Program-made: the position numbers and the translations under genes
Shown: positions 24,245-55,479 of the stretch, piece after piece
How the letters are laid out: every line of letters starts with the position of its first letter
How positions within the stretch are numbered: the first letter of the stretch is position 1
The notes under the pieces: model-generated
What the model saw: the letters and a program-made list of their open reading frames with translations, nothing else
Database searches by the model: none
What the model was told of the DNA's origin: nothing
Assembly (NCBI GenBank): GCA_014871385.1
Contig: CM026422.1
Coordinates: 14,952,127 to 15,016,126 of the forward strand
Direction: 5' to 3'
Source of the DNA: Ceratodon purpureus
Lineage: Eukaryota > Streptophyta > Bryopsida > Pseudoditrichales > Ditrichaceae
Length of the DNA stretch: 64,000 bases

Positions 24245-24715
24245 CAACGTCCAACATATTTGGAAGAATCTAACTGTAGGATCTAGTACCTAACTTGTAC
24301 ATGTATGTGTACACAAAATTTTAGATTGTAAATCCTCACCATTTGAGAGATTGTAAGGTTTGAATTTGAGAAAAAAATATTTTTGGTATTGCCTCGCAGG
24401 GACAGCCACTTCTTGGACAGTGAAACAGGCAATTTTTAGTGATCATGTGGGTGGAGGCTCTTCTGATTTTCATTTCAAAATGAGTTGGGAGTATGCTCCC
24501 AAAATTTGAGGAGCATATAGTATACAGAAGTATAGAAAACCCACATGTCTGGTGACGAGGGTCATATAAAATGCCAATCTCAATCTTCTAATTTTCAAAA
24601 TCCCAACGGTGAGATGGGTCATAGAAAATGGACACTGGTTCTTTTTGAACACTACAAATGCCAATCTCAATCTTCTAATTTTCAAAATCCCAACGGTGAG
24701 AACGTCAATTGGTAC
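24245..24715. repeat. Copy of the dispersed non-coding repeat family
   Basis: It starts at GAATCTAACTGTAGGATCTAGT and follows the duplicated-block copy at 6725-7120 motif by motif (roughly 80% identical by eye): the GGGACAGCCAC core, AGTGAAACAG, GAGTTGGGAGTAT. A 61-bp internal piece containing GCCAATCTCAATCTTCTAAT is itself duplicated (near 24573 and 24659). Confidence 0.65.
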
Positions 24716-24719
24716 TAAC

Positions 24720-25575
24720 AAAAAATTGTCCTAAACTCTAAATCCACTAAAAAATAAATCCAAAAGAGATATGATTTTCACAACATATTATGAAATGACT
24801 TTGTTGATTTATTTATTTTTACTCAATGTGGCTATGATTTATTTATTTATTTATTTTTATTGCTAAAAGGGCCACGCAATGACTTCGTTGTTTTTGCAAG
24901 AAGGGCCTCAAAATGGCTTTATTGTTGAACGATTTATCTAACGTCTATATAAATTTTATGTAACATCTATACAATTCTTCCATATTAATTTATGTAACAC
25001 GCCCATGATTCTTCCAAGTGAAAGCGTATGTAACATCTATGTAAACCTTGTACAAATCTTATTTAAAACTTATTTTGGATTATGCTGCGATAACATGTCA
25101 CTTTTTTATGCATGATATGTACATGTGCATTTATTACATTTTAATACAATCAACATAAAGATCATGTTTCAACAAGATTATGCAAACCAATCAAAATTGT
25201 TATATGATATTCTCATTTGAACGATTTATGTAAATGTCATATAAAGTATACAAGCAAAAGTTTGCATTAAAAACATGTGCAAAGGCCATTTATAATTTCT
25301 ACACAAAAAAATTATACTTTTTATATAAGAGTTACATATTTTTTCCAATCATGAAATATCTGTAACATTTACATGATTTGGGTGTAGATTGCACATTTCT
25401 AAATAGTATATGCAAATCACAATGGAGATTTTATGTAGATGTTACATGGTCTGTATATTGTTTTGCTGTAAATGTCACAACTTGTAACATCTACATGATT
25501 TCCATGGTGCAAGTTACACTTCAACATTTTTGAGATTAGTAGTTGGATAGCTGCGAAATGAGAACTCACACAAAG
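24720..25575. other. Gene-free stretch with degenerate TGTAACAT words
   Basis: Repeated ATGTAACATCTA and related words occur between about 24940 and 25530, comparable to 14150-14560. In both places they follow a copy of the dispersed repeat family, suggesting a composite repeat. No coding sequence was seen. Confidence 0.4.
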
Positions 25576-29961: not shown

Positions 29962-32549
29962 TCAAACTTCACTGTCAACAGCTACGGCACGACCCCTCGT
30001 TGCCATGGCTGGAGCGTTACCTGTGACCTCGTGAGGATCCAAGAGAGACGGAGGTGGACCCTGAGGTTGAAATCCCTCTCCCCTTTTGTGGTTGTCCTCA
30101 GTGGCGGTATGATTCATAGAGCGTGATAATGGTCCGTGTTGCCCGACCGGGCTCGCACATCCATTGACAGATCCATTGGCAATCGAAGCATCCGATACAT
30201 CAGTTGATACTGCGACTTGGTGCAGGACTTGTGCACTTCCACGACGAAGCGAGTTCCTTTCGTTAGGGGTCAGAAGAACAGTATCCGCGCTCATCCACGA
30301 TGCTGATGGACGTTCCTGATTACCTGCAATAGCAACCGGCTGCACTGCTGGATTGACAACTCCCTCGTTCTGGGGCGTTCCGTCTTCCTCATCCGGAGCA
30401 CTGTGGCCTTCAATAGTAGTATCAATGACTTGCGCATTCACTCTGGCGGTTGAAGGAGGGACAGATATCATGTGTGGAAGAGGTCCTTCAAACGACCTGT
30501 CTGTGGTCGTCGTTGCCTCGGCTACTTTCGGGAGTGCTCCGGATGACGATGAGTTCACGAGGAGCAGAAGCATGTCCTTGAAGTCGCGCTGTGTATTAAG
30601 AACCTCTTCGACCATCGAAATGTTGTGCGTTACTTGCTGTGCGAGGTCTCCCACTCGCGACTCTAGAGTCTGAATTCGAATTGCGTCCTCCACTGTTTGG
30701 AGATGAGACCCCTCCTCATGAATCTGTCGCGTTCGCCCTCTTCGAGTGTACTCTGGTGTGTGCTGTACATGGACAGATATAGTGCACTTATAGGTTATGT
30801 AAAATAACCACCAGCACTAAATGTATGCATGTTCCTGTCAACGGAACAATAAGAAAAAGGATGAGGACTTACATTTGGGAATGCTGGCGTGCCATCCGCA
30901 TCCAAAGTGTGACCTTGTGCGGACTCTCTCGTAGACGTATCACGGAATCCGCTTGATGTCGGAAAGTTCTCCCCATGGCCCGTGCTACCAGATGGAACAG
31001 AGGACGTTTGATGAGTCCGGCTTTGCTCCTACAGTGCCATCGTCATGACGTCAATATAGCATACACTGAGGGGAAACTGGATCATTATTATTCTACAACT
31101 TTATAAAATCTGAAAGGTGCACACAAAAATTAAAATCGGTGAATACATAAAACAAACCTGATGCGGGAGAGGCATTGTGGAAGCAGGCCCATCAGAGTCT
31201 TCGCTGGGACACTTTTGTGGACCGAGTGAACGTAAAGCTACCATTTGTTCGAACTCTTGCTGTCCTGCAACACTCAGCCAATACCGTCGCAATGTTGCAA
31301 ATGCCTCATCCGGGCATTTCTCATGTTGACCACCTTTATTTGCAAAAAAAAATTCCTTCCACTCTAATCTGTCGTTTTTCACAGCGCCCTTTAGGAATTT
31401 CAATAGATATTTCGCACACAATGGATAATCGTATGTGAAAATTTCATCAAGAGACTTGTATATTCTGTTTACTGCTTCCCACCAAAGACCTTTCCTTCCC
31501 CTGTAACTTCTGATTGTCTGGTCCATACTCTGTCTAGCAATGAGACGCACCTGTCGATGCCAAGCGCTACGTAGCCCAATTGGCTTACCTGTAGTCGTGG
31601 TGGGAACATGTATGACGGGTGATCTCCGCTCAGCGTGGGCGCTGGCCATTTCGGTAAAGTAAGGTTTCGTGTAATCTCTCTGGAGTCGTCTCCTCTTGTT
31701 CGTCTCTTCTTGTGACAGGCGGATGTTATCCGGTGAAGTGCGCTGTACAACTCCACGTCCACTGTTCCTTTGCGCTTGTGGAATGGCCGGTGGTGCGACA
31801 GTGAAGTCATGAGTGCTTTGCCTTTGTTGGAAATTGAGTCCAGCATATCCTTCACGAAGTCCGGAGATGTTACGTACTGTCCGCTGTGGCGGTGGTGGAG
31901 GAGTGCGATCACTAGGCCACGTCCTCGACGAAGGCATACCTTGTGACTGCGAAGGTCCCTCCAGAATGGAACCATAACGATGATTCACAGCGTACTGGCT
32001 GCACTGCACTGACGTAGGAAGATCGTTGAATTTGTCGCACTCAAACTCACCGTCTAGTTCTTGATACTGTGCCTACTTGCAGGACATTTTACTATAAGTT
32101 AGATTCTAACTAATCATCTTGGACTTCATAAGAGTCGCAGATGTATACCGATGGCAACTAATCGTGGCCTTTTCTCGGACAAGCAATAAATTCAAAACTG
32201 TAATGAACTGTCGAAGACACACGAAAGTCACGAAGATACTTCTCTACCGGAAATTGCAAAGTCATGAAAGGGAAGAAAGAACCTCATCTCGCACTCTTGA
32301 GTTCTCCAGACCCGGTCCCATGTCTTCTGCCTGCAAGCTGCGTGCAGGAAATTGACTGGAGCTGGCCATGTACTGCGAAGACATTCTGAGACTTGCGCTG
32401 CGAGGGTAATGCACACTTAGAGGGGTGGATGTCGCACACTGAGAAGACATTGAATCTGCAGAGTCATGTAGGTCTAATGTGTCCACAGAGGAGCTAAAAG
32501 TTGGGGACGAGCTAAACTCGTCTAAGATCTGCCACCCTACATGCGCCAT
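29962..32549 (-). CDS. CACTA accessory protein (TNPA-like second gene), 712 residues
   Basis: Four exons, 32549-32283, 32072-31158, 31028-30873 and 30762-29962, are each multiples of three and join at GT-AG sites without stops. The central exon encodes a proline-rich segment, then K-R-R-R-L-Q-R-D-Y and a helical W/K/R-rich region (S-A-W-H-R-Q-V-R-L-I-A-R ... W-W-E-A-V-N-R-I-Y ... L-K-F-L-K-G-A-V-K). That region resembles the DNA-binding Myb/SANT or Transposase_24-like proteins carried by plant CACTA elements. The last exon has a predicted coiled coil (I-R-I-Q-T-L-E-S-R-V-G-D-L-A-Q-Q-V) and a Ser/Pro/Thr-rich tail. By analogy with TNPA it may bind the subterminal repeats; this is inference from position and style, not a confident domain match. 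It is divergent from the TNP2 gene. The start at 32549 is only 47 bp from the edge of the nested element, which has therefore displaced its promoter. Confidence 0.65.
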
Positions 32550-32595
32550 TAGGGTTGCACTTAGGATGACGCTGAAATCCACCAACACAGATACT

Positions 32596-32629
32596 CATTA
32601 GGAGCAGTTTGGGGTCTCCAACGGGCCTT
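32596..32629 (+). repeat. Left terminal inverted repeat of the nested element
   Basis: It is a 34-bp repeat beginning CATTAGGAG and ending GGTCTCCAACGGGCCTT. It pairs inverted with 43376-43409; the six mismatches all fall in the A/T-rich middle. Confidence 0.88.
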
Positions 32630-32675
32630 TTCCATGCTTTCCGTGCCAAAGTTTTGGGCATGCCCGTGCACTTTA

Positions 32676-32702
32676 CCTGCTGGCACCAACTGTGCCAGCA
32701 GG
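32676..32702. repeat. Perfect 11-bp-stem hairpin next to the left TIR
   Basis: CCTGCTGGCAC and GTGCCAGCAGG are perfect inverted copies around a 5-base loop. Each arm contains a half of the element-wide TGCTGSCAGCA motif. Confidence 0.85.
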
Positions 32703-33362
32703 TCGCCAAAAGCGAGCCAAATCGCGAATGGGGGGGTCCGGCCAATGGTCGCGCAGGAAGGCTTCCCTCCCCCGCGCGTGTAGTCCCGCAGGTCGAGAAC
32801 GGAGCCTCTTCGCGCACGGAATTCGAGCATTGCAGAAGGGTGTCAGCGGTGGTGGGCTTTATGAACGCCTGCGAAACTGACTCCACAGGCCACCTACCGA
32901 AATCGAATTGCCGCTCCCCCTTTGAGATGCAACGTGCACAAGGTGTTGATGTCGAAATGCTGCCAACGGTCATTCCGAACCTCATGCGTTCCCCTGAGAG
33001 AGTTGTCGTTGTTGCGTTGTCAAGCAGGATGGAGCGGTGGAGGCCTCCAAAGGCTGGGCGAAGTTGTTCGATTTGGGTTGTGGGTGGTCACGCATTGTGC
33101 AGTAGAGATTTAGGGTTTAGCTGTAGTGGTCTTCCAACGCTGCCAGCGGTCTGCCATCCACATAGGTTGGAGAGACTACCTGAGTTGGGAATTGGGGTTT
33201 CGGGATGAGGTTTTAGGGTAGGTCGTACCTTGGTTGCGAGGCCGTGGACGCAGGTTTCAGCCGTTCGTGATGGCGGAGGGTGTGTTGACAGCGTGTAGTT
33301 CTGGCGGTTGATGACAGCGACGACACCATTTGTAAGTTTTTGAGTTCACAGTCGAAAATTTC
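32703..33362. other. Left internal spacer of the nested element
   Basis: This 0.66-kb moderately GC-rich stretch has no supported coding exon. It is the likely promoter and leader of the rightward 426-residue gene; one motif copy (CGCTGCCAGCG) lies near 33138. Confidence 0.45.
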
Positions 33363-34701
33363 ATGCATTCTAGTGGTATGGCTTCACGGCCAAACTCCCT
33401 CGTACAGAGTGTCATTCTGCATAATACGCAAGACTTGGAGGGCAACTGGATCCCGATGAGGGTGGATCGTGATTCATGGGTTATGCTGCAACCAGCTTCG
33501 GATGGGCCTTGGGGTAGAGAGGCAAGGCGACATGGTGGAGAAAATTTTCGGGGGGCCTTCAAAGCGCAGATCAGAGATTTCTCTTGGATCTCCACGGAGC
33601 ATGGAGCATGCGACCTCGATAAGGTGCTTGTGCAACATGCATATCAACCAAGGCATCTGCGCTTGGATCCTGCGGAGGCAGCAACCAAATTGGGAATGGC
33701 AAACTACCTGTACGCGTCGGTTTCGGAGGATTGGGTACATCCCGCATCTATCCTTGGTCCCATTCTTGTGCTCCATGTTGAGATTGGGGAGGCAACACGG
33801 AATCGACAGAGCCACGCGGAGTTGCTGGACATAGGTACATTCTTCCTTGGTGGTCTGTATTTGCCTCCAACAGGTGACACGCTGTACGGGAAGGTTGAAG
33901 CACTCCCGCTTCCAGGGTTCAACGATGTGGAGTGGCCTTTGCCAGACATGCACACATCTGAGGCGTTTAGAACAAAGCTCACTCTCGATTTTGCAAATGC
34001 TATGAAAGCAACAACTGGTAGCAGCTTCGTCCACCAGCAATGGTTTATGCCAATCCATGTTATGGTTGATTTGTTTGCGGTAGCTGCTGACAGCATTAAG
34101 CGGACACCTACATTGTTTGTTTTGAGTAGTCCATCCGAGGCTCTGCTGAGCAGTCTAATGAACCCAGGGTGGAACGAGAAGTTCCACATTGGCCAAGATG
34201 TCATCAAGTGCGTTGCCAACAGGACCAGCATTGTTTTCCGCTATCACGTGGGAAGACAAACATTATACACCAGGTTCATGTATACAAGGTATAGGGGGGC
34301 TGCCAACAGTCAGTGGGAAGCCTTGGATCACCTACCAGAGGAGGTGATGGTGGAAGTGTCTTGTATGTTTAGGGGGAACTTGCTGCCAACATTCGAAGTT
34401 GGCAAGGGTTGGCCAGTATCCCACCTGCGGCACGAAATTGCAATGGCACTTGGAGATGACGTACCTGGGCAGTACAACCTGGTTTTGATAGAGGCCAACG
34501 GTGTTCGTGAGAAAAAGGTATGAGTCTAGCCGAATTCATGTAGTCGTTTTGATGTGTTGGGAATTGGCTGTTCAGAGCTCCTTGCTGCCAGCAAACGAAA
34601 ATGACAGGATTTGTTGGATGCAGATCAACCAGCGCCATGAGAGACACCTTACAGCTGCGGATGTCACGGTTCCCAAAAGGATGAAGATTGTGGAGCTGTA
34701 G
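33363..34701 (+). CDS. Nested-element protein of unknown function, 426 residues
   Basis: Two exons, 33363-34517 and 34576-34701, join in phase 0 across a short GT-AG intron and end in TAG. The start may be the Met at 33363 or the one five codons on. I recognise no family. The body is mixed alpha/beta in appearance with hydrophobic blocks (L-G-P-I-L-V-L-H-V-E-I; M-P-I-H-V-M-V-D-L-F-A-V-A-A; L-F-V-L-S-S-P). The last ~100 residues (V-M-V-E-V-S-C-M-F-R-G-N-L-L-P-T-F-E-V-G, then L-R-H-E-I-A-M-A-L) have the rhythm of a ubiquitin-like fold; this is a weak impression. It is the only gene of the element on the plus strand. An intact frame across two exons argues that it is maintained. A motif copy at 34583-34593 falls inside exon 2. 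Confidence 0.65.
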
Positions 34702-35677
34702 GAAAAGTGATTTCGGGGATGGGTAGTCACAGTATGTGGGAAGTCATTAGGTTCTTCGCGAAGTCGTTAGCGAGTTCAGGTAGTGGTTTTGCTTACCATT
34801 CAGGACTTTCTGTGGGACATCCTGTATTAACGTGTTATATGGAGGCAAATTTGTGATTACCCTTGATCTTCGTGCTGCCAGCGGAAATAGAAAAGAAAAA
34901 CAGTTACAATTACCAGTGGTGAATCCTAGGGTGCAAAATGAAAAATAGAATAAAATACAAGAAGTCTGAAGAATGGCCGGGGTTTCAGAGGGCCTGGGTC
35001 TGAATCGCAAAATTGCTTCGAACTTGTGGTGGCGCCATTGACGCTGGAGCCTGCTGCCAGCGCAAAATAAGAAAAGAAAAACAATTGCATACAATAGAGC
35101 ACATGACCCTTCAGAGGCACAAAATGGAGTTTGGCACTTGACAAATATGAAGTAATTAGGAAGGAATGTAAAGTTTGTTACTTCCTCCGAAGAGGCTGGC
35201 TCCTTCGTGAACCTGGTGCTCTGAACTGGCAACGGCGGGCACAATGCAGCTCTTGGTGCCAACAAAGACGAAAAAATGAAGGTTGCAAATAAAAAAAGAA
35301 CCACGCTCGATTCTAATAGAACAAGATAAAAATAAAAAACAGTTGTACATAAGAGATGAAGTAGGTCGCAGATGGTAAATAACAACAATGGCCAAAATTG
35401 AAAGGGACCATGGTGGCGAATAATGAAAGAAGAAAAAAAAAATGGCGGCTAAAGAGCAGCCCTTGCTGTCAGCAGTCCACAATAAAGAAGAAATACAGTT
35501 GCGAATAAAAAGGAAGGGTTACAAGAATGCCATATCTTTCAAAGAGACATGGCAGTCCAGAGGCAAATTGTTTTCAAGTTCGGAAAAGTTTAAGAAAGGT
35601 GGCCCATAAAAGTCCGGACCAGAAGTCGCTGCCAGCAAACCCCTAACCCGGCCTACAAAACTATCCAAGGTGGGAAT
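34702..35677. other. AT-rich spacer between convergent genes of the nested element
   Basis: No gene is supported. At least four copies of the TGCTGCCAGC motif occur (34873, 35052, 35464, about 35628), so the spacer keeps the element-wide repeat although it is otherwise A-rich. Confidence 0.5.
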
Positions 35678-37613
35678 CTACTCCACGTTTGCGTTTGTGG
35701 CAATTGCCTCAACAAGGCTCGACAGTCCCTCCATGTTGGTGTCGTCCTCGTTCTTCTCTGCTTCAGGTGGTCCTTGCGTGGTGGCGGATGAGTCCTTGTT
35801 CCCATCTCCAGATGGGGCTGCCTGGGTCTCCTGAGGAGAGCGTTGCGTGGGATCGAACGCCAGGGAGTCTGAGTCGGGGAGAGCATCCTCTGCAGTTGCT
35901 GGCAACAAACAAGAGTTAGAAAACAAGAAAATGTAAATGTAACAACAAGGCAGGCAACAAGAAATGGGTAGATGGGATGAGGGGCCACAAACCTTGGTCG
36001 CCCTTGGCCTTCTTCCACGGAAGCGCGGCCACTGAGGGGGCAGCGGGCCTCTTGCTGCCAGCACGTGGTGAAGCGGGCTCGGCCAGAAGGATCTCCTCCG
36101 TGAGGCGTAGTTCCTCCGCGGCCTTGGAGTCAAGGTCGAAGCCCCACTGCCCAAGCCACCCTCCAGTCATCCCCCGCTCGCATCGACGGCACCGGGCGTC
36201 CTGGGAGAAGACTGCCTCAAACATACAATGGGGATGTGCCAAGCAGCCGCAGAACAAAGGTACGCAGCAGGTGTCAACGAAGTAACGCTCGCAGAAGGGG
36301 CATGGGTCGTTCAGGGCTATTGGCAACACCTGGAACTCCAATGGATAACGAGCCAACACCTTCTTCGGGCGCAAGAAAGCTGAAGCCAACTCCAAGGCCG
36401 AGATCTCCGCTGTCAGCGCGGAGACCTCGGCGTGGCGTCTCTGCTCATCGGCTTCCATCTCCTCCAACTTCTTGTAGACCCTGTCAATGCGGGCTTGGGC
36501 CTCCATCAGTGCCTTGCTTGCAAGCCCCAGCTTGTCTTGGCCTAAGCGGGCCGCGTGATCAAAGCGCCTCTTCTCTTGGTCGTTGCCATCAGCCGCGGCC
36601 TTCTTGGAGGCCTCGCGGGCGGAGAAGATGTTGTCATAGAGCTTGGACTCCTCGGCCTCCTTGGCTTTGATGTAGTCCCGCTGGGTTGCAAGGTCGACCT
36701 TCACGCGGTCCCGGCTGGCCTCCACCTTCAGAAGTGCCGCCTCCAAGGACTTCTTCTTGAGGCGCTGCTGCTCCAGGACCTGCTTCGGATCCGTTGCCAC
36801 CAAGGGCTGCACCTTGATGGCAACGGCAGCAAGGGCCTTCACGGCCTTCTTCTCAGCCACGGCCTTGGCAGGAGGGGGCAGGGATCTAGGTCCCCTGACC
36901 TTCTTCGCCTCCGCGGCCGTGATCAAAGCCTTGGAGGTGGCTCCAAGTGGCTTGGCTCCTCCGCTCGACTCCGCCCCTCCTCCCTTGCCCTTGCTGCCAG
37001 CACCGGGGATGTGGCCAGCGAGGAAGTCGATAATGGCTTCAATCTGCTCCCTCAAGGCCGGGGGAGTCAACTTCTGCGGATTACGCCCTGGCAGCTTCTC
37101 ACGCCCCTTCACAATTGCCTCCGCCTTCTGGGCGAAGTTGACATCCACGCCCTTCTCAAAGTAGAGGTGGCAAGCCCGAAGAAAGGAGGTCCCGAATGCC
37201 CAGTTGTCGGGGTCACCTCCATAAGTCCACCGGTACATCTCGCAGTATTTCCTCTGGGCCTCCGGATCCTCACAGTCAGCAACGTAGTGCCGCCCAGAAG
37301 AACGCTCTGGCCATCTGTCGATGAAGTCGGCCTTCCTGCAATGCTTGTCGCCGCTGAGGTCACTGAACTTCAACCCCTTGTTGGAGAGCTGCAAGGTGCG
37401 GGCGAAGAAGTCCTCATCGTAATCCGCAGCCTGCCTACCCAGCAGAAATGGGGCGAGGTGGTGGAGCTGTGCATGAAGTGCAGGGGGTAAGCCGTCCAAG
37501 TCGAAGGCGTCATCCCACGGCGTCTCAACATCGTTGCCATCCTCCTTGCTGTCAGCAACCTCGACGACCTCCTTCTTCACGACGGCCTCCTTTCCCTTCC
37601 TACGGCTCGACAT
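35678..37613 (-). CDS. Coiled-coil protein with RING-like Cys/His cluster, 613 residues (nested element)
   Basis: Exons 37613-35993 and 35898-35678 total 1842 nt and join in phase 1. The start M-S-S-R-R-K-G-K-E is chosen because an acceptor-like site lies just upstream and the frame before it looks non-coding. The N-terminal third is acidic then globular (F-I-D-R-W-P-E-R; W-T-Y-G-G-D-P-D-N-W). Residues of about 270-420 are Ala/Lys/Glu-rich and strongly coiled-coil. A cluster C-P-F-C ... C-C-x4-C-x-C-x3-H-x2-C ... C-R-R-C follows at about 438-481, with RING-like spacing. The tail is acidic and basic (nuclear-type K-R-P ... K-K-A-K). A ubiquitin-ligase or DNA/chromatin-binding role is possible, not shown. 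Three separate A-G/D-S-K tetrapeptides are all encoded by the element's GCTGNCAGCAAG motif. Confidence 0.72.
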
Positions 37614-39435
37614 CCCTGGCGCTGGTAGTGCAAAAACAACACGTTTTACGAAAGGGGGATCGCGCATGGCAGCTGAAAAAGGGAAGACCACTGACAAGAC
37701 ATTATTCATTCGGTTTAGTTGAATTTAGTTCTGAAAACATGAAGCCTCACAACTGAAAGGACCTTCGCGGCCATGGCTGAACGACCTCACCCAACTGTGC
37801 CATGCCCCTCTACGCATTGTACAACAACAAAGAGAAATTGCCAAAACAGAGTTGCAAAAACAAGCTGCTTACCTCTAAGCCGAAGCTCAGTCAGAGCTGT
37901 CTTCCGTTGCCGAAGCTCTCTTCGCCGCGCTGTAGCTCTCCTCTGCGCGGCCTGCTCTTCTCTTCCCCTTCTGCTCCCCTCTGCAGCCCGAACCCGCTCT
38001 CTACGCCTTCACTTCCCTCTTCCCCTACAGCTTCCCTCTGCGCCGCGGCTGTCCTTCGGCGCCGAAGCTCCCCAACGCCCCGCTGCTTCTCCCCGCTGCT
38101 CGCGCTGGCCTTCTTCACTGCTCCCTGAGGCGCCCTAGCTCCTCCCCACCCCGCTGGTCGCACCTCCGCGCTGAGCTCCTACCGCTGCAGTGCCAGAGCT
38201 GTGGCCGCAGCCTTCCCCCCCCCCCCTGCTGCCCGCGCAGCTGCTGCGGGCCCGATGCTCGTGACAGCCACCCAGCTCCTCACTCCCCCAACTCCTTCCT
38301 CAGAACTCGACCCCGCTCCTCGCGGCTCCGCCGAACTCCGCACTCCTCAGCTCCCCCAAGCGCACCGCCCTCGCCCCTCCTCCTCACAGGTCCTCCACGG
38401 GTCGCACCTCCCAGTACGGCTGCACGGATGAGTCCTCCACGGCTCCCTCTGCACCCACAAAATCCTCACACCCCCCTCCGCCTAGTTCGAAATTGCGCTC
38501 TTCAACGGTAGAAATCAAGGGTATGGAGAAAGACAAAGGATGAAGAAGCCGAAGCACTACCGTGTCAGTGCAAACCCGAGGCGCCTGCTGGAAGCAAGAG
38601 CGCGGCAGTAGAAGAGAGGAGTGAAGCTAACAGTCAACCCCATATCTTTTTTCGGGAAGAAGGCCCAAGACTGGTGTGAAGGAGACTCTTGCTGGAGTCA
38701 ACCGCCTGCCACGTGGGCAGCGTCCTTCAAGGGGGGTATGAGACTCTTAAGCAATGTTAATTAGGGGGGTCGTAAAGGAGGTGTTGGGAAGGTCACAGCA
38801 ACCTTAATTGTCAATCATTTCCACGGCCTTATACATCATTTCCCCATTTGATTTTAATTGCAACAAATTGGCATAGAAATTAAAATTAAAATTTAAGGGT
38901 GAGTGACATGTATGATTACTAAGACACATTCATTGAATTCATCATTATGAAGAGTTATAATCCCTTGGATTGGTCTTTCTAGTGAAATAACCACAAAACA
39001 AGTTTAGGGGAGAAACATGGTCTAACTCATTCAAAAAAAACATTGTTGCCAGCCACATTCTACATAGGTATAAGTTATAACATAATTACCAAGGCACATT
39101 GCGGTCAAGTCACACACGGCCATTGCTCGCGTCGTCACTGTCCTCATTGCTGCCAGCCACCTCACTGTCAGTGGACTCCCCTTCTTCTCCATGGGTGCCT
39201 CTTTAATAATTATCGAGATTAACTTAGCAATGGATAAGCCATTTTAGGGAATTGCTCGAAAAAATCCTCATTTTTTGATAAATCTATCCGTAAATGGCTA
39301 TTCTAGAATGAAACCAAAAAACATGTTAAAGAAGATCCACTGTCTACTCCGATAAAAAAAATTAAAAAAAATTAAAAACTTGCTACATTATAGATGTCCA
39401 TCCAATGAGTTTAGAACGCATAATTTGTACTCAAT
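37614..39435. other. Spacer of the nested element, pyrimidine-rich then AT-rich
   Basis: The first 0.9 kb (to about 38500) is strongly C/T-rich on the plus strand; its open frames are Ser/Pro/Leu-rich artefacts. The rest is AT-rich with motif copies at about 39045 and 39148. It is the likely promoter of the leftward coiled-coil gene and 3' region of the transposase gene. Confidence 0.45.
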
Positions 39436-42400
39436 TCATACAGGCTCGTTGCCAGCGTCATCGCTGTCCACGTTGTTGCCAGCGTCGTCACCGTCAGTTG
39501 AGTTGCGTCCTTCCTCAAGATCCACATTGTTGCCCTCCTCCCCGGGGTCATCTTCGTTGGCAGATCCTCTTGCTTGATCATTGTTGGCTCCATCACCTCC
39601 AACGGTGTTATCACACACCCAAGCTTTGCCAACACGCCGTCGCCTTGACCGCCAATTCTCCAAAGCCCTGGCAGCATTTGATCGATGCCACTGTTCTCGC
39701 CTTCTACGTGTAGCCTCCATGCGGGCCTCATCGTCCGGGGTATTTAGAACCCTGGTGCACTCTAATTTCTTCTTATACCGATGCTGTATATTTCGGTACC
39801 AATGTTGGAATTGTTGCAAAATCACACTGATGCGCTCTTTGCCACCACCGTGAGCTGTATGCGCTTGATTCGCTGCCTTCGCTTGATGATGGGATTTCTC
39901 CATACCCTGGCAACTCCATACGGCCAGACTACCGTATTCCTCCACAAACCAACTGCCATGCCTGACAATTACATGCTGTCAACAGCCACTCCAAGGTTAG
40001 TCCTGGATAGAGAATTGACGAAAGTGAGGTCAGCCATCAACCCCTAATTCATCCCAAACCTCGTTCATATAACTCACCATGTAGTGCGACACATGCTCCT
40101 CTCCGAAGGCCTCCAAAAATGTTCTCCCCCACGTTTCTATCTTCCCTTTGAACTGGAGTCGTTGTTCTGCTGTCAGCACCAAGCCGCTAAAATATGGTAG
40201 AACCTCTTCAAAGGCTTGCCACATAGCAGCCCTTGCCCTACGATGTGCACCGCCGCCACTATTATTGCTCTCTGCTTGACATATGTCTTTCCAGGCCTTG
40301 TCGTTTCCAGACCATACGCTTGGTTTAAATAGTCTGCTAGCAACAACCTCACAGAAAGATGGCTTCTGTGGCACATTCCCTGTGCTGCCACTCAGTTTCG
40401 GATCCTTTCTAATCTCCACATTGCCACCGTGAGCCCCGATAGCTGACAAGGACTTCTCCATTTGCTCTATGGCTGTAGCCCTCAGTCTTTGATCTTGTAT
40501 GTTCCAGACATAAATGATGTGTTGATGCACAATCTTCTCCGCTAGGCGAACTAGGGCGTGAAGTGTACAAATGTGCACTCTTTGCAACGGAATTGGCAAG
40601 ATAGGCCTCCACCTTGTATGTGCACGCATGTCACATGGTTCTGGCTCCACAGAGTTGGCAAACAGTCCCCCCACCCAGTTTGGTTTCCCACGTTTTCTGA
40701 TGGCAGCACTCGCCTGGCTTGCTGTCCCTACGGTAGGCTTAGCCCTCTTCTGCTCGCAGTATATGCAGTTCATCGCACACGACGGCCCCGACTGAAGCCT
40801 GTACATACACTTGATCGTCTTCATGTCCGCAGCGAGATGCCACTCCACATGGAATTCTCCAACTTCAGGGACCGTGAGTTTCTCGCCACTGGACTGTGCT
40901 GCAATCACAGATGGAAATTTGGATTTCCCAAATATCCACGACAGAACTTCGTAGGACTCTTTTTCCACTTGAAAGGTTGCCACTGGCCAGATTTCCTGCT
41001 CCGACTGGACTGAGAAAAACAGGGCATGGTTTCTCTGAATGTCTGGGTCGAGCGCCCTATTCATCAATGTGATGCTGACCCGTTCAAACTTCTTGCCATT
41101 GACAATCTCGGCCTCGTCCAATTTCATGACAAATACCAGCGGTGCCCCTCTTAACTCTGTGGAAACATGGCGAGTGGATGTGTAAGTCACGGTTAATTGA
41201 TAAATAACCCTCCTGGCAGCAAACTCTGAAAACAACAGTCTGAGGTGATTACGTTACCTTCTTCCGTGATGCCGTAGAAGATCACCATGCTCCTTTGGAC
41301 CACCTCAAGGTCTGTGAATAGGGAATTCTTGTCAGTCAAAACGACTTCCTTTACCATGTCCTCGGACTTCTTGTTCTTCTTAGAACTTGCTGGCAGCGTA
41401 AGTCGACCTTCAGCATGGTAGTATTCGCCAATATACTGTGGCAGGTTTGCATTTAACTCCTGCCGAAGCAGTTTCACGTGATAGGGGCTCGGCAAAATAC
41501 TCCCGGAGACTCCTTTGTTCAGAGCAGCAATGGGAGCCTTCACAGATTTGTAGAGAGCACCATATCCCCGATGGGAAACCCCTGCCTGGTCGCAAGCAGC
41601 AAGAATTTTGTCCGGTCCAATACTCTTACCAATCGATTTGAGCACATTTTTCGCAATATCTGACTGAACATGTGCCATTGCAGGCTGAGAAGCGAGCGCT
41701 ACACCTTCATGCCGTGACAAAATTCGAGCTAGTGCTACTGCAGTCCTATTTTGGGACTCTTTATCCCCCCGCAGTCGAGAGCACTTCCGGTTCTCTCGGT
41801 TCCTTTTGACAACAAACTGCACCACATCTGGTTGCAGCACTGTCCGCACAAGCTTCACTCTTGCTTTTGATCCACCTGATCCAGGTTTTAACTCGTGAAT
41901 CCCTCTGAGAGCCCTCCTCCTATTTCGCATGCCCATGGGGGTCTCCTTCTCGAAGCTGGCCCTCCGCTGGCAGCGGTCAACGTCTTCTTGGAGACCCCGC
42001 ACATGGCGCTCCAATTGCTCCACCCTTTGGGCATGGCAATCACGGACAGCCTGTAATTCAGCTTGCAAATCCCTGCATTTCTTCTCTAACTCAAGGCAAC
42101 GCATTCTCCCCAATTGGACATCTTGGGCTGCCCTTGAGTTGCTGGCCAGAGCTTCGCCTCTAAGCTGAAGCACTTCTTCGCTCAACTGTGCCAACTGGAT
42201 CCGCGTCTCCTCCTGTGTAGAACCATGTACACAATGATCCAGCAGCCTGTGTGTATATCCGCGAAGACCCTGCTCTCCATGACATATGAATTCAACAAAC
42301 TCTTTTAGCGACTTGATTGGAGGTGGCTTCCCTGTCATTGGGTCAACAGGGTAAATGTCTCCATTGATCCACAAGTCAATGTTCGTGTCTCCACGCAACC

Positions 42401-42530
42401 TCCGTGTTGGAAACGAGCTCCTCATGCACAGCTCCACTTGCGTAGAACCTCGTCTCATGACCGGGGCATAGCGTGTGTCCAGTGCAAAGTGGGGAATGTA
42501 CTGATTGCTTCGTTCAGCCCTTGCTGCCAT
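39436..42530 (-). CDS. DDE-type transposase of the nested element, 986 residues
   Basis: Three exons, 42530-41257, 41224-40078 and 39975-39436, sum to exactly 987 codons. The second junction uses a GTGAGT donor. The first intron is only 32 nt. Residues of about 105-190 are coiled coil. Residues of about 320-400 contain a helix-turn-helix-like part (I-L-A-A-C-D-Q-A-G-V-S-H-R-G-Y). The catalytic region has Asp 461 (V-M-K-L-D-E-A-E-I), Asp 558 (W-H-L-A-A-D-M-K), C-x2-C at 578/581 (C-I-Y-C), an L-H helix (I-C-T-L-H-A-L-V-R), H-x4-H at 808/813 and Glu 833 in G-S-L-A-V-W-S-C-Q-G-M-E-K-S-H. The C-x2-C / H-x4-H / G-S-x3-W-x3-G-x-E order is that of RAG1's zinc-binding catalytic core, and CMC/KDZ transposases share the C-x2-C and L-H steps. 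The tail is Asp/Asn-rich. The residue assignments are inference from pattern. Confidence 0.75.
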
Positions 42531-43375
42531 CGTGGACCCTACAGTCGGTAATCTTGATTGAATCTCCCCTGGTCACACTTGGTGATTTGCTGTTATTCGA
42601 GAGAACTTGTTCTGATCTTCGGACACCTCCTACACCCAATGAAAAACTGAATTCACAACCTCAAATACTCCGAACCTAATTCGATAGACCTGCGTGGCAT
42701 CTACAAGCGCTATCGACCACGAAACCTACATTGCCTTATGCCGTTGTGGCAGCAAGGGCTAATGAAATCGAAATTCAAATTGCTCAAAAACCCAGTAGCC
42801 CCTGAACACCCCACAAAGGTTTATCGAATTAGGTTAACTTACCTTCCCTTCAAGTACATCAGTTTTCATCTCTTCGTTGAAACCTTGGTCGCCGACTGAG
42901 AACAACCCCTTGCCGCCGTCGCTGCCAGCGGACGCTGCCAAGAAATGAATTGCAATCTCAATTTTGCTCCTCCGGTCTGGGGCGCCATCGCCACTCGGAA
43001 TCTTTCCCGCAAATCACATACGATTGTGCGTCCCACAGTGCCAACAACGACTTGCTTGAAGCAGAACAGGGCGCTTTGTTTTCTTGGTGCTGAACGGCGT
43101 AGAGCCGGTGGCGCCATCGCGCCCAGACCGTTGTGGCAGCAATTCGAAGTTGACAATCCGTGGATCGAGGCAACGGATCGAGGCACTTCATTAATCGCCG
43201 AGCAATAAATCCCAAGGATTGGCGCTCAACAACCACCGTCCACGCCCTCTCGCCAACAAGGCAAAATCCGGCCACGCAACTCCCGTCCGTCCGCTTCGGG
43301 CAGCGTTTCAGACCCCTGCTGACAGCGACAGAGGGGGTTTTGGGCAGGCAGCCCACCTAATCCGGGCTGCCTTAC
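42531..43375. other. Right internal spacer of the nested element
   Basis: This is the promoter and leader side of the leftward transposase gene. Motif copies lie near 42745, 42920-42930, 43130 and 43317. A perfect 8-bp-stem hairpin, GGCAGCCC/GGGCTGCC with 9-base loop, lies at 43347-43371 immediately inside the TIR, mirroring the hairpin at the other end. No gene is supported. Confidence 0.5.
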
Positions 43376-43409
43376 AAGGCCCGTTGGAGACCTCATTTTT
43401 CCCCTAATG
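43376..43409 (-). repeat. Right terminal inverted repeat of the nested element
   Basis: It is the inverted partner of 32596-32629. Read on the minus strand it begins CATTAGGGG and ends GGTCTCCAACGGGCCTT. Confidence 0.88.
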
Positions 43410-44989
43410 TCTGGCTACCTAAGGTTCATGCGGCACGATGGGCTGACGGCATTAGGGTTTCAGAGAATTCTAACGGGGTCAGCACGGTGCACCTACGCCG
43501 CCCACACGCACTATTCTTCGTGACTCGCAATTCTGCGGATTAACCAACTTACACGTGGGTTGAATTCCACAAGAATTCTCTCCTCCAGTGGTGCCCCTTT
43601 CTCCAGATGAGTCGATGACATGCATCTGCAAATTTCTGAATATCCCGAAATTTGTCCTTAATCGAATCAATACAAGACCACCAATACCGTGACGCCGTCA
43701 GACGCATCAATATAGATAAGTTCTGGAATGGGCGACGTGATCTGTATGTTAATAGACGATAAAATCAAACACTAAAGTTACCGGTATGTGGCCTGACTAA
43801 AGGGCGAAAGGCAGGCACGATAATAGCATTCTGGGGGTGCCGCATTTTCCCGCTTTAATGCATTCTGACGTTCTCCACAGAACCCTGTGCCCTGCAAAAA
43901 GAAAGAGAGAGATCAGCGGATTTTGAGATAACGACAAAACAATTATCGGAATATACACACAACGGGGGAGTTAAAGAACCGCAGAATCCTAAACAAGCAT
44001 GTACAGAGTAGGGGGAAAGCGCAAGAGCAGAGCAAAACCTAATCCATTTACAAGAATCCCACAGTACATGAAGAAATTCTTATAGCTCGAACGGACAGTC
44101 GTGCTACCGGAGGCATTGAGCGCCTTCAGCCATCTCGGCGCCGGAGACATTCGTCATGGAACCATCGCGGATACCAGGGCGCAGCAACGGCCGAGAAGTG
44201 TCCGGGATACCTTCCGCAATTGCGACACCAAGGAGCCTCGAAGGTAGAGAAGATGATATTGAGCATCAGCTATCGCAGTTGAACCTAAGTGGAGAAGGAG
44301 AACAACTCCATATCATTGATCCGTGGTGGGACATTCTTGACCTAGAACAGGACTGGTGACCCTGTCCGCTTGGTAGGGCAATATTCGGACCCATGGTTGA
44401 CATGCAATACCGTGAATGCAAGTCGTATCTCCTAACGACATTACTCTTCTTCAAGATTGCGGAACTACACTGTTGTAATGTGGAAGTCTTTGGTAGTTTG
44501 TGGGGCATGGTGTTCTCCTGGTTGCTAGATATGGTGTTCGTGTAGTACGGAATTCTGCCATTAGGGTTGCTTTCATGATAGGAATGTAATTATTCCTCAA
44601 TCTTCAAGTACAGTTTGAAGCCATGGAGGTTTGAATTGTGTTCCCGAATCCATGTTTAGAGAACTGCCTTCCAGCGCAGGAGCATTGGCTCAATAAAGAT
44701 CGACTCTTGGATCTCAAGATAATTCAGAACATACTGATCTCCACGTTTCTGTCTCTGCCATCGTTCGTGCACCACCTAGTATTCGCACTTATGGAGCGCT
44801 GCGCAGTCGACGAAAACATCCACGAAAGTATGGATGAATAATGTTGTAATCCATTCTAGTCTGACTTAATTATCAATTCCCGCGAGGGTTTTCCATCCCG
44901 CACCACATTGCTGTTTCTTGAGCGAAACCCTCATGCTGTGCGCGTAGGGTTCCCACAAGGATTTTTGGACACATATACAATTACCCAAC
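43410..44989. other. CACTA interior between the nested element and the TNP2 gene
   Basis: This is probably the other half of the divergent CACTA promoter region. A 67-codon frame (44156-44359, ATG start, acidic, W-W-D-I-L-D-L-E-Q-D-W end) could be a leader exon or small protein, but I see no supporting homology. Confidence 0.4.
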
Positions 44990-54071: not shown

Positions 54072-55479
54072 TGTTAAGAGCCATTCAATTAGTCTACGTA
54101 TCAAATTTTGTAAACTTTGACCGTACGGATTTTGAGATATATTCAGTCAAAGTTCCAAGTTTTATAAAAACTGTCAAGACTGATTGGTTCACCTTCGTCA
54201 CCCATTTTCCCTTCATCATTTTCTCCTCCTAAACCACAGTATATGCTGTAAAATTCACTTCTGTTTTGGATTTATTTATCTTTTGGATTATTTTCCTCTA
54301 CAATTTAATTTCCATACAAATGCATGTATACACCATTCGGATTCCCAAAAATTAGATGATCTTCTTAGGCATTTGTAGTGTGGAAAAAGACCTAGTGTAT
54401 ATGCATTTCATTTGACTCCCGTCACTAGAAATGTGGTTTTCCAATGCTTTTGTGTGTTGTCTTCAATTGTCTTCAATTTTTTTGAGTATACTTCCAACTC
54501 ACCTTAGAATCCAAAACTGAAGAGCCTTGAACCACACGATCTCAAAAAATTGGCTGTTTCACTCTCCGAAGGGTGGCTGTCCCTGCAGGGCAGTACCCAA
54601 AAAAACTTTTCTGTCAAGTTCAAACCTTACGATCTTCCAAACGGTGAGGAGTTACAATCTAAAATTCTGTGGACACATACATGTACAAGTTAGGAACTAG
54701 ATCCTACAGTTAGATTCTTTAAAATATGCTTGAATGTGCACAATTCTACCTTGAACTAAAATAGGGCAAAATTGAGGCAGAATTTGGGATTTTATGGCCA
54801 AATGCTTTAGGGGTTAAGCCACAGAAATTCCAGAAGTAGGCTACAGCATCACAGTGGCATGGGCATCACTCTGTAAAACTGTTACACGTAACAAAGACAT
54901 TTGTGTGTGTAAAAGCCTCGTGGTCTCTAAACCTTAGAAAATTAGTTTTGTTATCCTTAAAAACTATTTTTTGTTGAGGTTAGAGACCGACTTCTTACAC
55001 ACCAAATATGAATAAGAGACCACCAAGTTCTTCCACGTTTACTAACTATATTTAACAATATATGAAAAAAACTCATCGCATCTTTGAAAAATACTGGATG
55101 ACTCAAGAAACTAACTAATATGTTACATTCATTTAACACAAATCTCTAATTTTTTTGAAAAAACATAAAATACACAGTGCACAACGTGTTTCCATCAATA
55201 TAGAATCATTCAAACGCCCCTCACGAAAGCCCGAGAACTGTATCACAAAATGACGATAAGGCACATCGATCAGGAAGAACATCTTCTCATTACCAAACAG
55301 CTGGACTTCAAATTTTATTCTTCCTGCATGAGATATGCAGAAATCAATTCTCACCCGTAAACCGTGAACACAGTCTTGGCGTCACATTTCGTCACCAGCT
55401 AGAAAACCAAAGTAAAACTTTCACAGCCAGAATACAGAAACCAAGGTACCCCCTCAAACCTCAGTGAGTTCCCCAGATC

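What the first reader, a model, noticed from the sequence alone, without database searches (positions are those of the whole stretch)
32596..43409. A 10.8-kb DNA transposon that fits no family I recognise, nested in a CACTA element
Seen: inverted 34-bp ends matching at 28/34 positions enclose three spliced genes whose exon lengths and phases all close with no stop codon. The host CACTA transposase is broken, while this guest looks intact, so it is younger and may be active. Its transposase and two partner proteins do not match CACTA, hAT, MULE, PIF, Mariner or Helitron gene sets. Inference: a distinct element type with an accessory RING-like protein. No target duplication is visible at the ends.
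Basis: partly seen in the sequence, partly recalled or inferred. Interest (0 to 1): 0.92.

Follow-up and report, generated by a model that had tools for sequence, protein, structure and literature searches.

The report
Moss transposon inserting without target duplication
This is a young, abundant 10.8-kb jumping gene of a moss (almost certainly Ceratodon purpureus) that slips into DNA without gaining or losing a single base at the target, an unusual trick for a cut-and-paste element, and it probably belongs to a family already named Lanisha.

Summary
Window 32596-43409 is a complete DNA transposon with 34-bp inverted ends (28/34) and three spliced genes. It is young and abundant: 40 left-end matches scored at 99-100% (874 candidates), and 35 further copies were read at both ends. 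Direct repeats at the joint are at chance in 36 copies. Eleven paralogous empty sites at seven insertions show the flanks joining exactly, with 0 bp gained or lost. The 975-aa transposase reaches no Pfam cut-off and has no related PDB entry, but carries D..D..C2C..H4H..E with RAG1's 19-residue H-to-E spacing. It is probable kin of the EnSpm/Transib/RAG1 (CMCT) clade, described with 2-5 bp duplications; alignment support is modest. The genome matches Ceratodon purpureus, two of whose genome authors co-proposed the superfamily 'Lanisha' in 2020; this is probably Lanisha, but that record could not be read. Also found: a palindrome, GCTGNCAGC, 17 times across the element, in exons too, and 0 times in the other 53 kb; and a ~1-kb segment upstream of the RING-like gene that differs by 30-39% between subfamilies otherwise over 99% identical. 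So: a distinct element, probably already named, whose seamless insertion I did not find described for this clade in the passages I could read.

The parts
32596..43409 (.). complete transposon, 10,814 bp, inserted with 0-bp target duplication
   Evidence: ends shared by 20 of 20 other full copies; empty sites L081 and L082
32596..32629 (+). left terminal inverted repeat, CATTAGGAGC...
   Evidence: 28/34 with right end
43376..43409 (-). right terminal inverted repeat, ...CCCCTAATG
   Evidence: (39 other matches scored of 745 candidates end at query base 208-214; 210 = window 43409)
33378..34517 (+). gene A exon 1 (421-aa protein in all, function unknown)
   Evidence: GT-AG model; exon 1 has no Pfam match above cut-off and only an unrelated weak PDB hit
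34576..34701 (+). gene A exon 2
35993..37613 (-). gene B exon 1 (610-aa protein in all; probable coiled coil then RING-like C-x2-C-x13-C-x-C-x2-H-x2-C-x11-C-x2-C)
   Evidence: spacing read from the sequence; no Pfam hit and only an unrelated weak PDB hit
35678..35889 (-). gene B exon 2
41258..42530 (-). transposase (T) exon 1: N-terminal part, probable coiled coil (weak Filament-type matches below cut-off)
40042..41156 (-). transposase exon 2: proposed first D (KLDEAE), second D (LAADMK), C2C (CIYC)
   Evidence: family search
39436..39975 (-). transposase exon 3: H4H (HVIVRH), then proposed catalytic E 19 residues on (GMEKSHH)
33139..43326 (.). 17 copies of the palindrome GCTGNCAGC spread over the element (first starts 33139, last 43318), 9 of them in coding exons
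   Evidence: 0 copies in the other 53,186 bp of the window
37640..38900 (.). hypervariable segment upstream of gene B that differs between subfamilies

Best explanation
A young autonomous cut-and-paste DNA transposon of a moss that matches Ceratodon purpureus. Its transposase (T) is probably a DDE enzyme, kin of the EnSpm/Transib/RAG1 group. SHOWN: fixed ends CATTAGG...CCTAATG; three open genes; a large family with transposase identities from 100% down to 92% among the matches scored; insertion exactly between two bases with nothing duplicated or lost; and a weak target preference (W at -3, Y at +2, T at +3). INFERRED: T cuts the element out at its ends and joins both 3' ends to directly opposed phosphates of the target (zero stagger), where its relatives attack 2-5 bp apart. 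A and B are accessory proteins; one of them, or T, binds the palindrome GCTGNCAGC as a dimer along the whole element, most likely to keep it open to transcription or to mark it. The segment upstream of gene B is swapped or evolves fast, most likely to escape sequence-based silencing.
For: Ends. Paired ends, 36 copies: direct repeats of 4 bp or more in 0; of 3 bp in 2 (about 0.6 expected); of 2 bp in 4 (about 2.4 expected). Empty sites at 7 insertions, 11 of 11 ungapped at the joint: window copy (L081, L082), L041 (138 columns), L015 (160/160 twice, 157/160 once) and L023 (159/160, 158/160), L035 (159/160), L029 (150/157) and L045 (142/159). Target preference: W at -3 in 31/36 (p 2e-4), Y at +2 in 28/36 (p 1e-4), T at +3 in 22/36 (p 5e-6), uncorrected. 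Motif order D..D..C2C..H4H-19aa-E as in mouse RAG1 (HKTLAH-19aa-E); local alignment reached by 5 of 500 shuffles for the H4H-E segment and 10 of 500 for the whole domain with BLOSUM45. The published clade description has the same motifs and mostly CA..TG ends. All three frames open in 19 of 21 copies and nearest-copy divergence as low as 0.0002. Palindrome. Variable segment.
Against: No Pfam family reaches its cut-off for T, and a PDB search with T does not find RAG1. The RAG1 alignment weakens with other matrices (BLOSUM62: whole 31, D2-C2C 151, H4H-E 4 of 500 shuffles; PAM250: 155, 66, 26), and the best whole-domain BLOSUM45 alignment does not pair the two H4H-E segments: it stops before exon 3. 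The structure model of exon 2 failed (pLDDT 37). The CMCT clade is described with 2-5 bp TSDs, which is not met. The target dyad is weak: a scan of 21 joints shows no excess of complementarity centred on the joint (0.27 there, 0.21-0.33 at centres 6 bases either side), and positions -2 and +2 are not symmetric. No transcript, protein-binding or transposition data. Binding of the palindrome and the silencing role are untested; unlike VANDAL motifs it is not confined to noncoding DNA, and it is absent from the variable segment.
Confidence: 0.8

Rival explanations
1. It is simply the Repbase superfamily Lanisha, with all its features (including target behaviour) already recorded in 2020-2021.
For: The genome matches Ceratodon purpureus: contig C6 is 110,524,308 bp, and the two sex chromosomes are given as 110.5 and 112.2 Mb (PMC9273592, passage). 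Lanisha was proposed by Maumus, McDaniel and Carey (reference entry in PMC12730594), and Carey and Maumus are authors of the Ceratodon genome papers (references). Lanisha is described as similar to EnSpm with C(2)C and H(3-4)H, as proposed here. That Lanisha is from Ceratodon is recalled, not read.
Against: The record itself was not readable (for the genome paper; Repbase Reports is not among the collections). The one source read says that the lineages of the clade, Lanisha among them, generate 2 to 5 bp TSDs, whereas this element makes none.
Confidence: 0.72
2. A new lineage beside Lanisha in the same moss, distinguished by zero-bp target duplication.
For: 0-bp TSD against 2-5 bp stated for the CMCT lineages; no Pfam family above cut-off.
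Against: Same clade motifs, and apparently the same species; the published sentence is a general one and may not hold for Lanisha itself.
Confidence: 0.2
3. Insertion by a site-specific recombinase or rolling-circle (Helitron-like) route, which would also leave no duplication.
For: Seamless insertion; the DDE assignment rests on motifs and a modest alignment.
Against: 34-bp inverted ends and a deletion derivative that keeps both ends (L039) fit DDE transposition; no recombinase, Rep or helicase domain reaches a Pfam cut-off in the parts scanned; targets share only a weak preference, no core site; the DDE, C2C and H4H positions occur in order.
Confidence: 0.05
4. The palindrome array and the variable segment are by-products (codon bias, slippage in GC-rich repeats) with no function.
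For: The variable segment is GC-rich, and two of the three representatives (L011, L013) are internally repetitive by BLASTN.
Against: Palindrome in coding exons in all three phases and in genes of both strands, 9 seen; synonymous-codon shuffles average 0.14 (A), 0.08 (B) and 0.11 (T) and reach the observed number in 7, 0 and 1 of 2000.
Confidence: 0.3

Closest known systems
Lanisha (Maumus, McDaniel and Carey 2020, Repbase Reports 20:2521; seen only as a citation and in passages of PMC12730594)
   Same: EnSpm-like transposase with C(2)C and H(3-4)H; proposed by authors of the Ceratodon genome; clade ends mostly CA..TG.
   Different: Cannot be compared directly; the clade is stated to make 2-5 bp TSDs, here 0.
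EnSpm/CACTA
   Same: Motif string with C2C and H-H between second D and E; multi-gene element; CA..TG ends.
   Different: No Transposase_21 match, no BLASTP match of T exon 2 to the TNP2 piece of the neighbouring CACTA, ends not CACTA, no 3-bp TSD.
Transib / RAG1
   Same: Motif order, and H4H to E spacing of exactly 19 residues in mouse RAG1 and here.
   Different: Overall sequence similarity near the noise; 5-bp TSD (recalled) against 0; different gene content.
Spy (PHIS superfamily)
   Same: TIR element with no target duplication (PMC4482050, passages).
   Different: Spy has a strong AAATTT preference and a PHIS transposase; here a weak W..YT preference and a CMCT-like motif string.
VANDAL/VANC (Arabidopsis MULEs)
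   Same: Element-specific short motif repeated along the element; fast-changing noncoding repeats; three gene names (VANA, VANB, VANC) (PMC5735166 passages; PMC10398659 abstract and section list).
   Different: VANDAL motifs lie mainly in noncoding tandem repeats and in one orientation; here the motif is palindromic, dispersed and also in exons, and absent from the variable segment.

Membership tests
[quoted passage not shown]
   CIYC in exon 2, HVIVRH and E in exon 3; definition. Assigned by eye, with modest alignment support.
[quoted passage not shown]
   CATTAGG...CCTAATG (L019 and L043 have one base changed near the right end)
[quoted passage not shown]
   at chance in 36 of 36 and 0 bp at 7 insertions with empty sites
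Lanisha | sequence match to the Repbase Lanisha consensus and ends | not testable with these tools
   record not held
Lanisha | host species Ceratodon purpureus (recalled as the host of Lanisha) | tested here: met
EnSpm/CACTA superfamily | Transposase_21 (tnp2) domain | tested here: not met
   no match for T at E up to 10; control ORF 45913-47052 matches at 2.1e-63
EnSpm/CACTA superfamily | CACTA termini and 3-bp TSD (recalled) | tested here: not met
Spy (PHIS) | no TSD | tested here: met
Spy (PHIS) | strong AAATTT target | tested here: not met
   only W(-3), Y(+2), T(+3) preferences
hAT, MULE, PIF/Harbinger, Mariner, Helitron | their transposase or Rep-helicase domains | tested here: not met
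   no such Pfam family listed for A exon 1, B, or T
RING finger (gene B) | eight ligands in RING spacing | tested here: inconclusive
   spacing fits with C in place of the usual H at ligand 4 (RING consensus recalled); no Pfam hit, no related PDB hit

The most novel reading that the evidence does not exclude
A RAG1/EnSpm-type transposase that joins both transposon ends at one and the same base step of the target (zero stagger), carried by an element that marks its own whole length, exons included, with a palindromic binding site for one of its proteins, and that renews the control region of its RING-like gene by wholesale exchange to stay ahead of silencing.
Probability: 0.35. Interest if true: 0.85.

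Novelty: new variant of a known kind. Interest (0 to 1): 0.62.

Why it matters
Target duplication length is treated as a signature of each transposase family, because it reflects the spacing of two active sites. A relative of RAG1 and CACTA with zero stagger would test how that spacing is set. Its many near-identical copies, exact ends and exact empty sites make it directly testable. An element-wide palindrome under selection inside exons would be a clean case of a transposon marking itself, and the variable control segment gives natural replicates for the arms race with silencing on autosomes and sex chromosomes.

Tried and rejected
Structure prediction of transposase exon 2 alone failed (mean pLDDT 37), so no fold search was made. 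Relatives were sought in viral contigs and prokaryote genomes: none confirmed. PDB by sequence gave one unrelated weak hit each for T (E 0.0056), for the RING region (E 0.74) and for gene A exon 1 (E 0.37). BLASTP of T exon 2 against the neighbouring CACTA transposase piece: best E 1.7. Shifted-end searches for a hidden TSD in 21 copies found nothing: the two highest scores (20 of 21, 2 bp) lie inside the constant ends, and the next is 7 of 21 for 2 bp, which also uses constant end bases. A pattern for related ends was one base off this element's own left end, so it caught only 9 variant ends. One of them (L091) has no transposase match in the 1.2 kb read about 2-3 kb inside (L092); its relatives could not be counted because the search machine stayed busy. 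CACTA ends around the insertion were not found in two looks. Empty sites were asked genome-wide for the window copy (two found) and for 8 more joints, of which 5 gave one among the 40 best rows (L013, L021 and L031 did not); all 21 joints were also compared with the fetched DNA alone (one found, L041). Of the rows listed for these joints I read only some: 3 of 3 L015 rows, 2 of the L023 rows, and one each for L035, L029 and L045. Searching with more divergent T relatives was not possible, since only near-identical copies (92% or more) surfaced among the 109 scored.

Considered and set aside: that the missing duplication is an old, eroded one (nearest copies differ by as little as 0.02%, and empty sites match 160/160); that the palindrome is a peptide repeat (it occurs in all three phases).
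Full report
WHAT IS THERE. The window lies at C2:14952127-15016126 of a 362,488,568-bp genome in 151 contigs. Its contig C6 is 110,524,308 bp. A review gives 110.5 and 112.2 Mb for the two sex chromosomes of the moss Ceratodon purpureus (PMC9273592, passage), and another gives 360 Mb for its genome (PMC8000587, passage).

ENDS AND COPIES. The two arms 32596-32629 and 43376-43409 match at 28 of 34 positions. A search with 1001 bases over the left end scored 40 of 874 candidates. Of the 39 other than the window, 22 matches begin exactly at base 32596 and 17 begin 1 to 9 bases outside it, as chance extension allows; identities are 99-100%. At the right end, 39 other matches (40 scored of 745 candidates) stop within 4 bases of 43409. 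I read 20 further copies in full. All have both ends at the same bases (L019 and L043 with one base changed near the right end); 19 are 10,781-10,834 bp long and one (L039) is 6,188 bp through an internal deletion. Another 15 copies were read at their ends only.

GENES. Models with GT-AG introns close without a stop: A, 33378-34517 + 34576-34701, + strand, 421 aa; B, 37613-35993 + 35889-35678, - strand, 610 aa; T, 42530-41258 + 41156-40042 + 39975-39436, - strand, 975 aa. In 19 of 21 copies all three frames are open; among them L041 has a B shorter by 6 aa, and the L011 group of four has a T of 979 aa. L045 stops 21 aa early in T, and L039 is deleted. No Pfam family reaches its cut-off for gene A exon 1, the B frames, the T exons or the spliced T; weak coiled-coil-type matches (Filament E 0.007, ATG17_like E 0.024 in T exon 1) stay below theirs.

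NO TARGET DUPLICATION. In 36 copies with both flanks read (the window copy, 20 full copies and 15 by ends), direct repeats at the joint are at chance: 0 of 36 of 4 bp or more, 2 of 36 of 3 bp (about 0.6 expected), 4 of 36 of 2 bp (about 2.4 expected). Allowing the ends to be misplaced by up to 8 bases on either side in 21 copies gives nothing except matches that use the constant ends.

Paralogous empty sites settle it. Joined flanks of the window copy match two other places at 78 and 80% over the joint, and alignment shows the joint ungapped in both, though L082 has a gap some 10 bases to its right. The flank of L027 holds an empty version of the L041 site, 138 columns without a gap. Two searches with eight more joints gave empty sites for five of them among the 40 best rows. 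On reading, L015 matches 160/160 at two places and 157/160 at a third, L023 159/160 and 158/160, L035 159/160, L029 150/157 and L045 142/159, none with an internal gap. Altogether 11 of 11 empty sites read, at 7 insertions, show exactly 0 bp gained or lost. The targets have a weak preference: W at -3 (31/36), Y at +2 (28/36), T at +3 (22/36); p values are uncorrected. A at -3 (20/36) and T at +3 mirror each other about the joint, as a zero-stagger attack would give. Against this, positions -2 and +2 do not mirror, and a scan of 21 joints shows no excess of complementarity centred there (0.27, with 0.21-0.33 at centres up to 6 bases away). The zero stagger rests on the empty sites, not on this symmetry.

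WHAT KIND OF ENZYME. T carries, in order, KLDEAE, LAADMK, CIYC, HVIVRH and GMEKSHH. The statistical support is modest: with BLOSUM45, 10 of 500 shuffles reach the score of the whole domain, 20 of 500 the D2-C2C segment and 5 of 500 the H4H-E segment. With BLOSUM62 these are 31, 151 and 4, and with PAM250 155, 66 and 26. The best whole-domain BLOSUM45 alignment pairs the second D and C2C but ends before exon 3, so it does not itself pair the H4H-E segments; those pair, without a gap around E, when aligned alone. PDB search with T alone does not find RAG1, and a single-sequence model failed. So the kinship is probable, not proven. The TSD feature of the clade is not met, so I do not file the element as a canonical member.

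IS IT LANISHA? [quoted passage not shown] reference entry). Carey and Maumus are authors of the Ceratodon genome papers (references). I recall, but could not read, that the genome paper reports these elements in Ceratodon. A full-text search for the word found 23 papers, 20 listed, one of them relevant. I put the chance that this element is Lanisha at about 0.72. Whether the Lanisha record already states zero duplication is unknown to me; the one source read implies otherwise for the clade.

A PALINDROME ALONG THE WHOLE ELEMENT. GCTGNCAGC occurs 17 times in the 10,814 bp and not once in the other 53,186 bp of the window; the next palindromic 9-mer of this form occurs twice in the element. It is present 17-19 times in each of the 20 full-length copies, window included, 13 times in the deleted L039, and once in 45,996 bp of flanks of the 21 copies. 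Nine sites lie in exons, in genes of both strands and in all three reading phases. Synonymous-codon shuffles give means of 0.14 (A), 0.08 (B) and 0.11 (T) against 2, 4 and 3 seen, reached in 7, 0 and 1 of 2000 shuffles. This is selection or copying at the DNA level. The likeliest use is as a binding site for a dimeric element protein. VANC proteins of Arabidopsis VANDAL elements, which bind element-specific motifs and undo silencing, are a working analogue (PMC5735166 passages; PMC10398659 abstract), but those motifs are mainly noncoding. A search of the paper library for GCTGCCAGC with 'transposon' found two papers, neither relevant by its listing.

A VARIABLE SEGMENT. The copies fall into three subfamilies (7, 4 and 9 copies; L039 set aside). 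Outside 37640-39950 copies of different subfamilies differ by 0.2-0.5% on average and by at most 1.0%. In 37640-38900, upstream of gene B, they differ by 30-39% on average, with 30-48% in the three core bins between one representative of each; one subfamily also differs by 4-9% on to about 39900. The window's version has 100 candidates in the genome, against 745-1084 for ends and transposase exon, with identities falling to 71% among the 40 scored. In what is by position one old copy on C6 it is 76% identical while the transposase exon is 94%. The segment thus moves or evolves apart from the rest; which of the two was not settled.

AGE AND PLACE. Of 109 transposase matches scored (of 1084 candidates, window copy included), the share on the 110-Mb chromosome is 10 of 48 at 99-100% identity, 19 of 38 at 97-98% and 15 of 23 at 92-96%; that chromosome is 30% of the genome. 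Older copies are concentrated there; the youngest are not. Identity is to the window copy, and the sample is the best-scoring part.

VERDICT. The interpretation 'fits no family' is softened to 'probably Lanisha, probable kin of EnSpm/Transib/RAG1'. The seamless insertion, the palindrome array and the variable control segment are the parts worth a specialist's time.

Noticed in passing
window 33139-43326 (17 sites): Palindrome GCTGNCAGC spread over the element, exons included, absent from the rest of the window.
   Followed up: yes
window 37640-38900: Segment upstream of gene B differs by 30-39% between subfamilies that are otherwise over 99% identical.
   Followed up: partly
G000 C6 (110.5 Mb): Among 109 scored copies the older ones are concentrated on the large chromosome, the youngest are not.
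   Followed up: partly
L091 (G000 C1:25465913) and 8 further sites: Variant ends such as CATTAGGGAAAAATGGGGTCTCCAACGGG; the one read resembles this element's left end: a related, short or truncated subfamily.
   Followed up: partly
window 24250-24788 and 54241-54733: Long inverted repeats about 30 kb apart that enclose this element and the CACTA transposase pieces; not CACTA-like at their ends as read.
   Followed up: no
window 32547-32556 and 43450-43459: CATTAGGGTT occurs in both flanks near the insertion, resembling the element's own end; both are also in the empty site L081, so they belong to the host repeat.
   Followed up: partly
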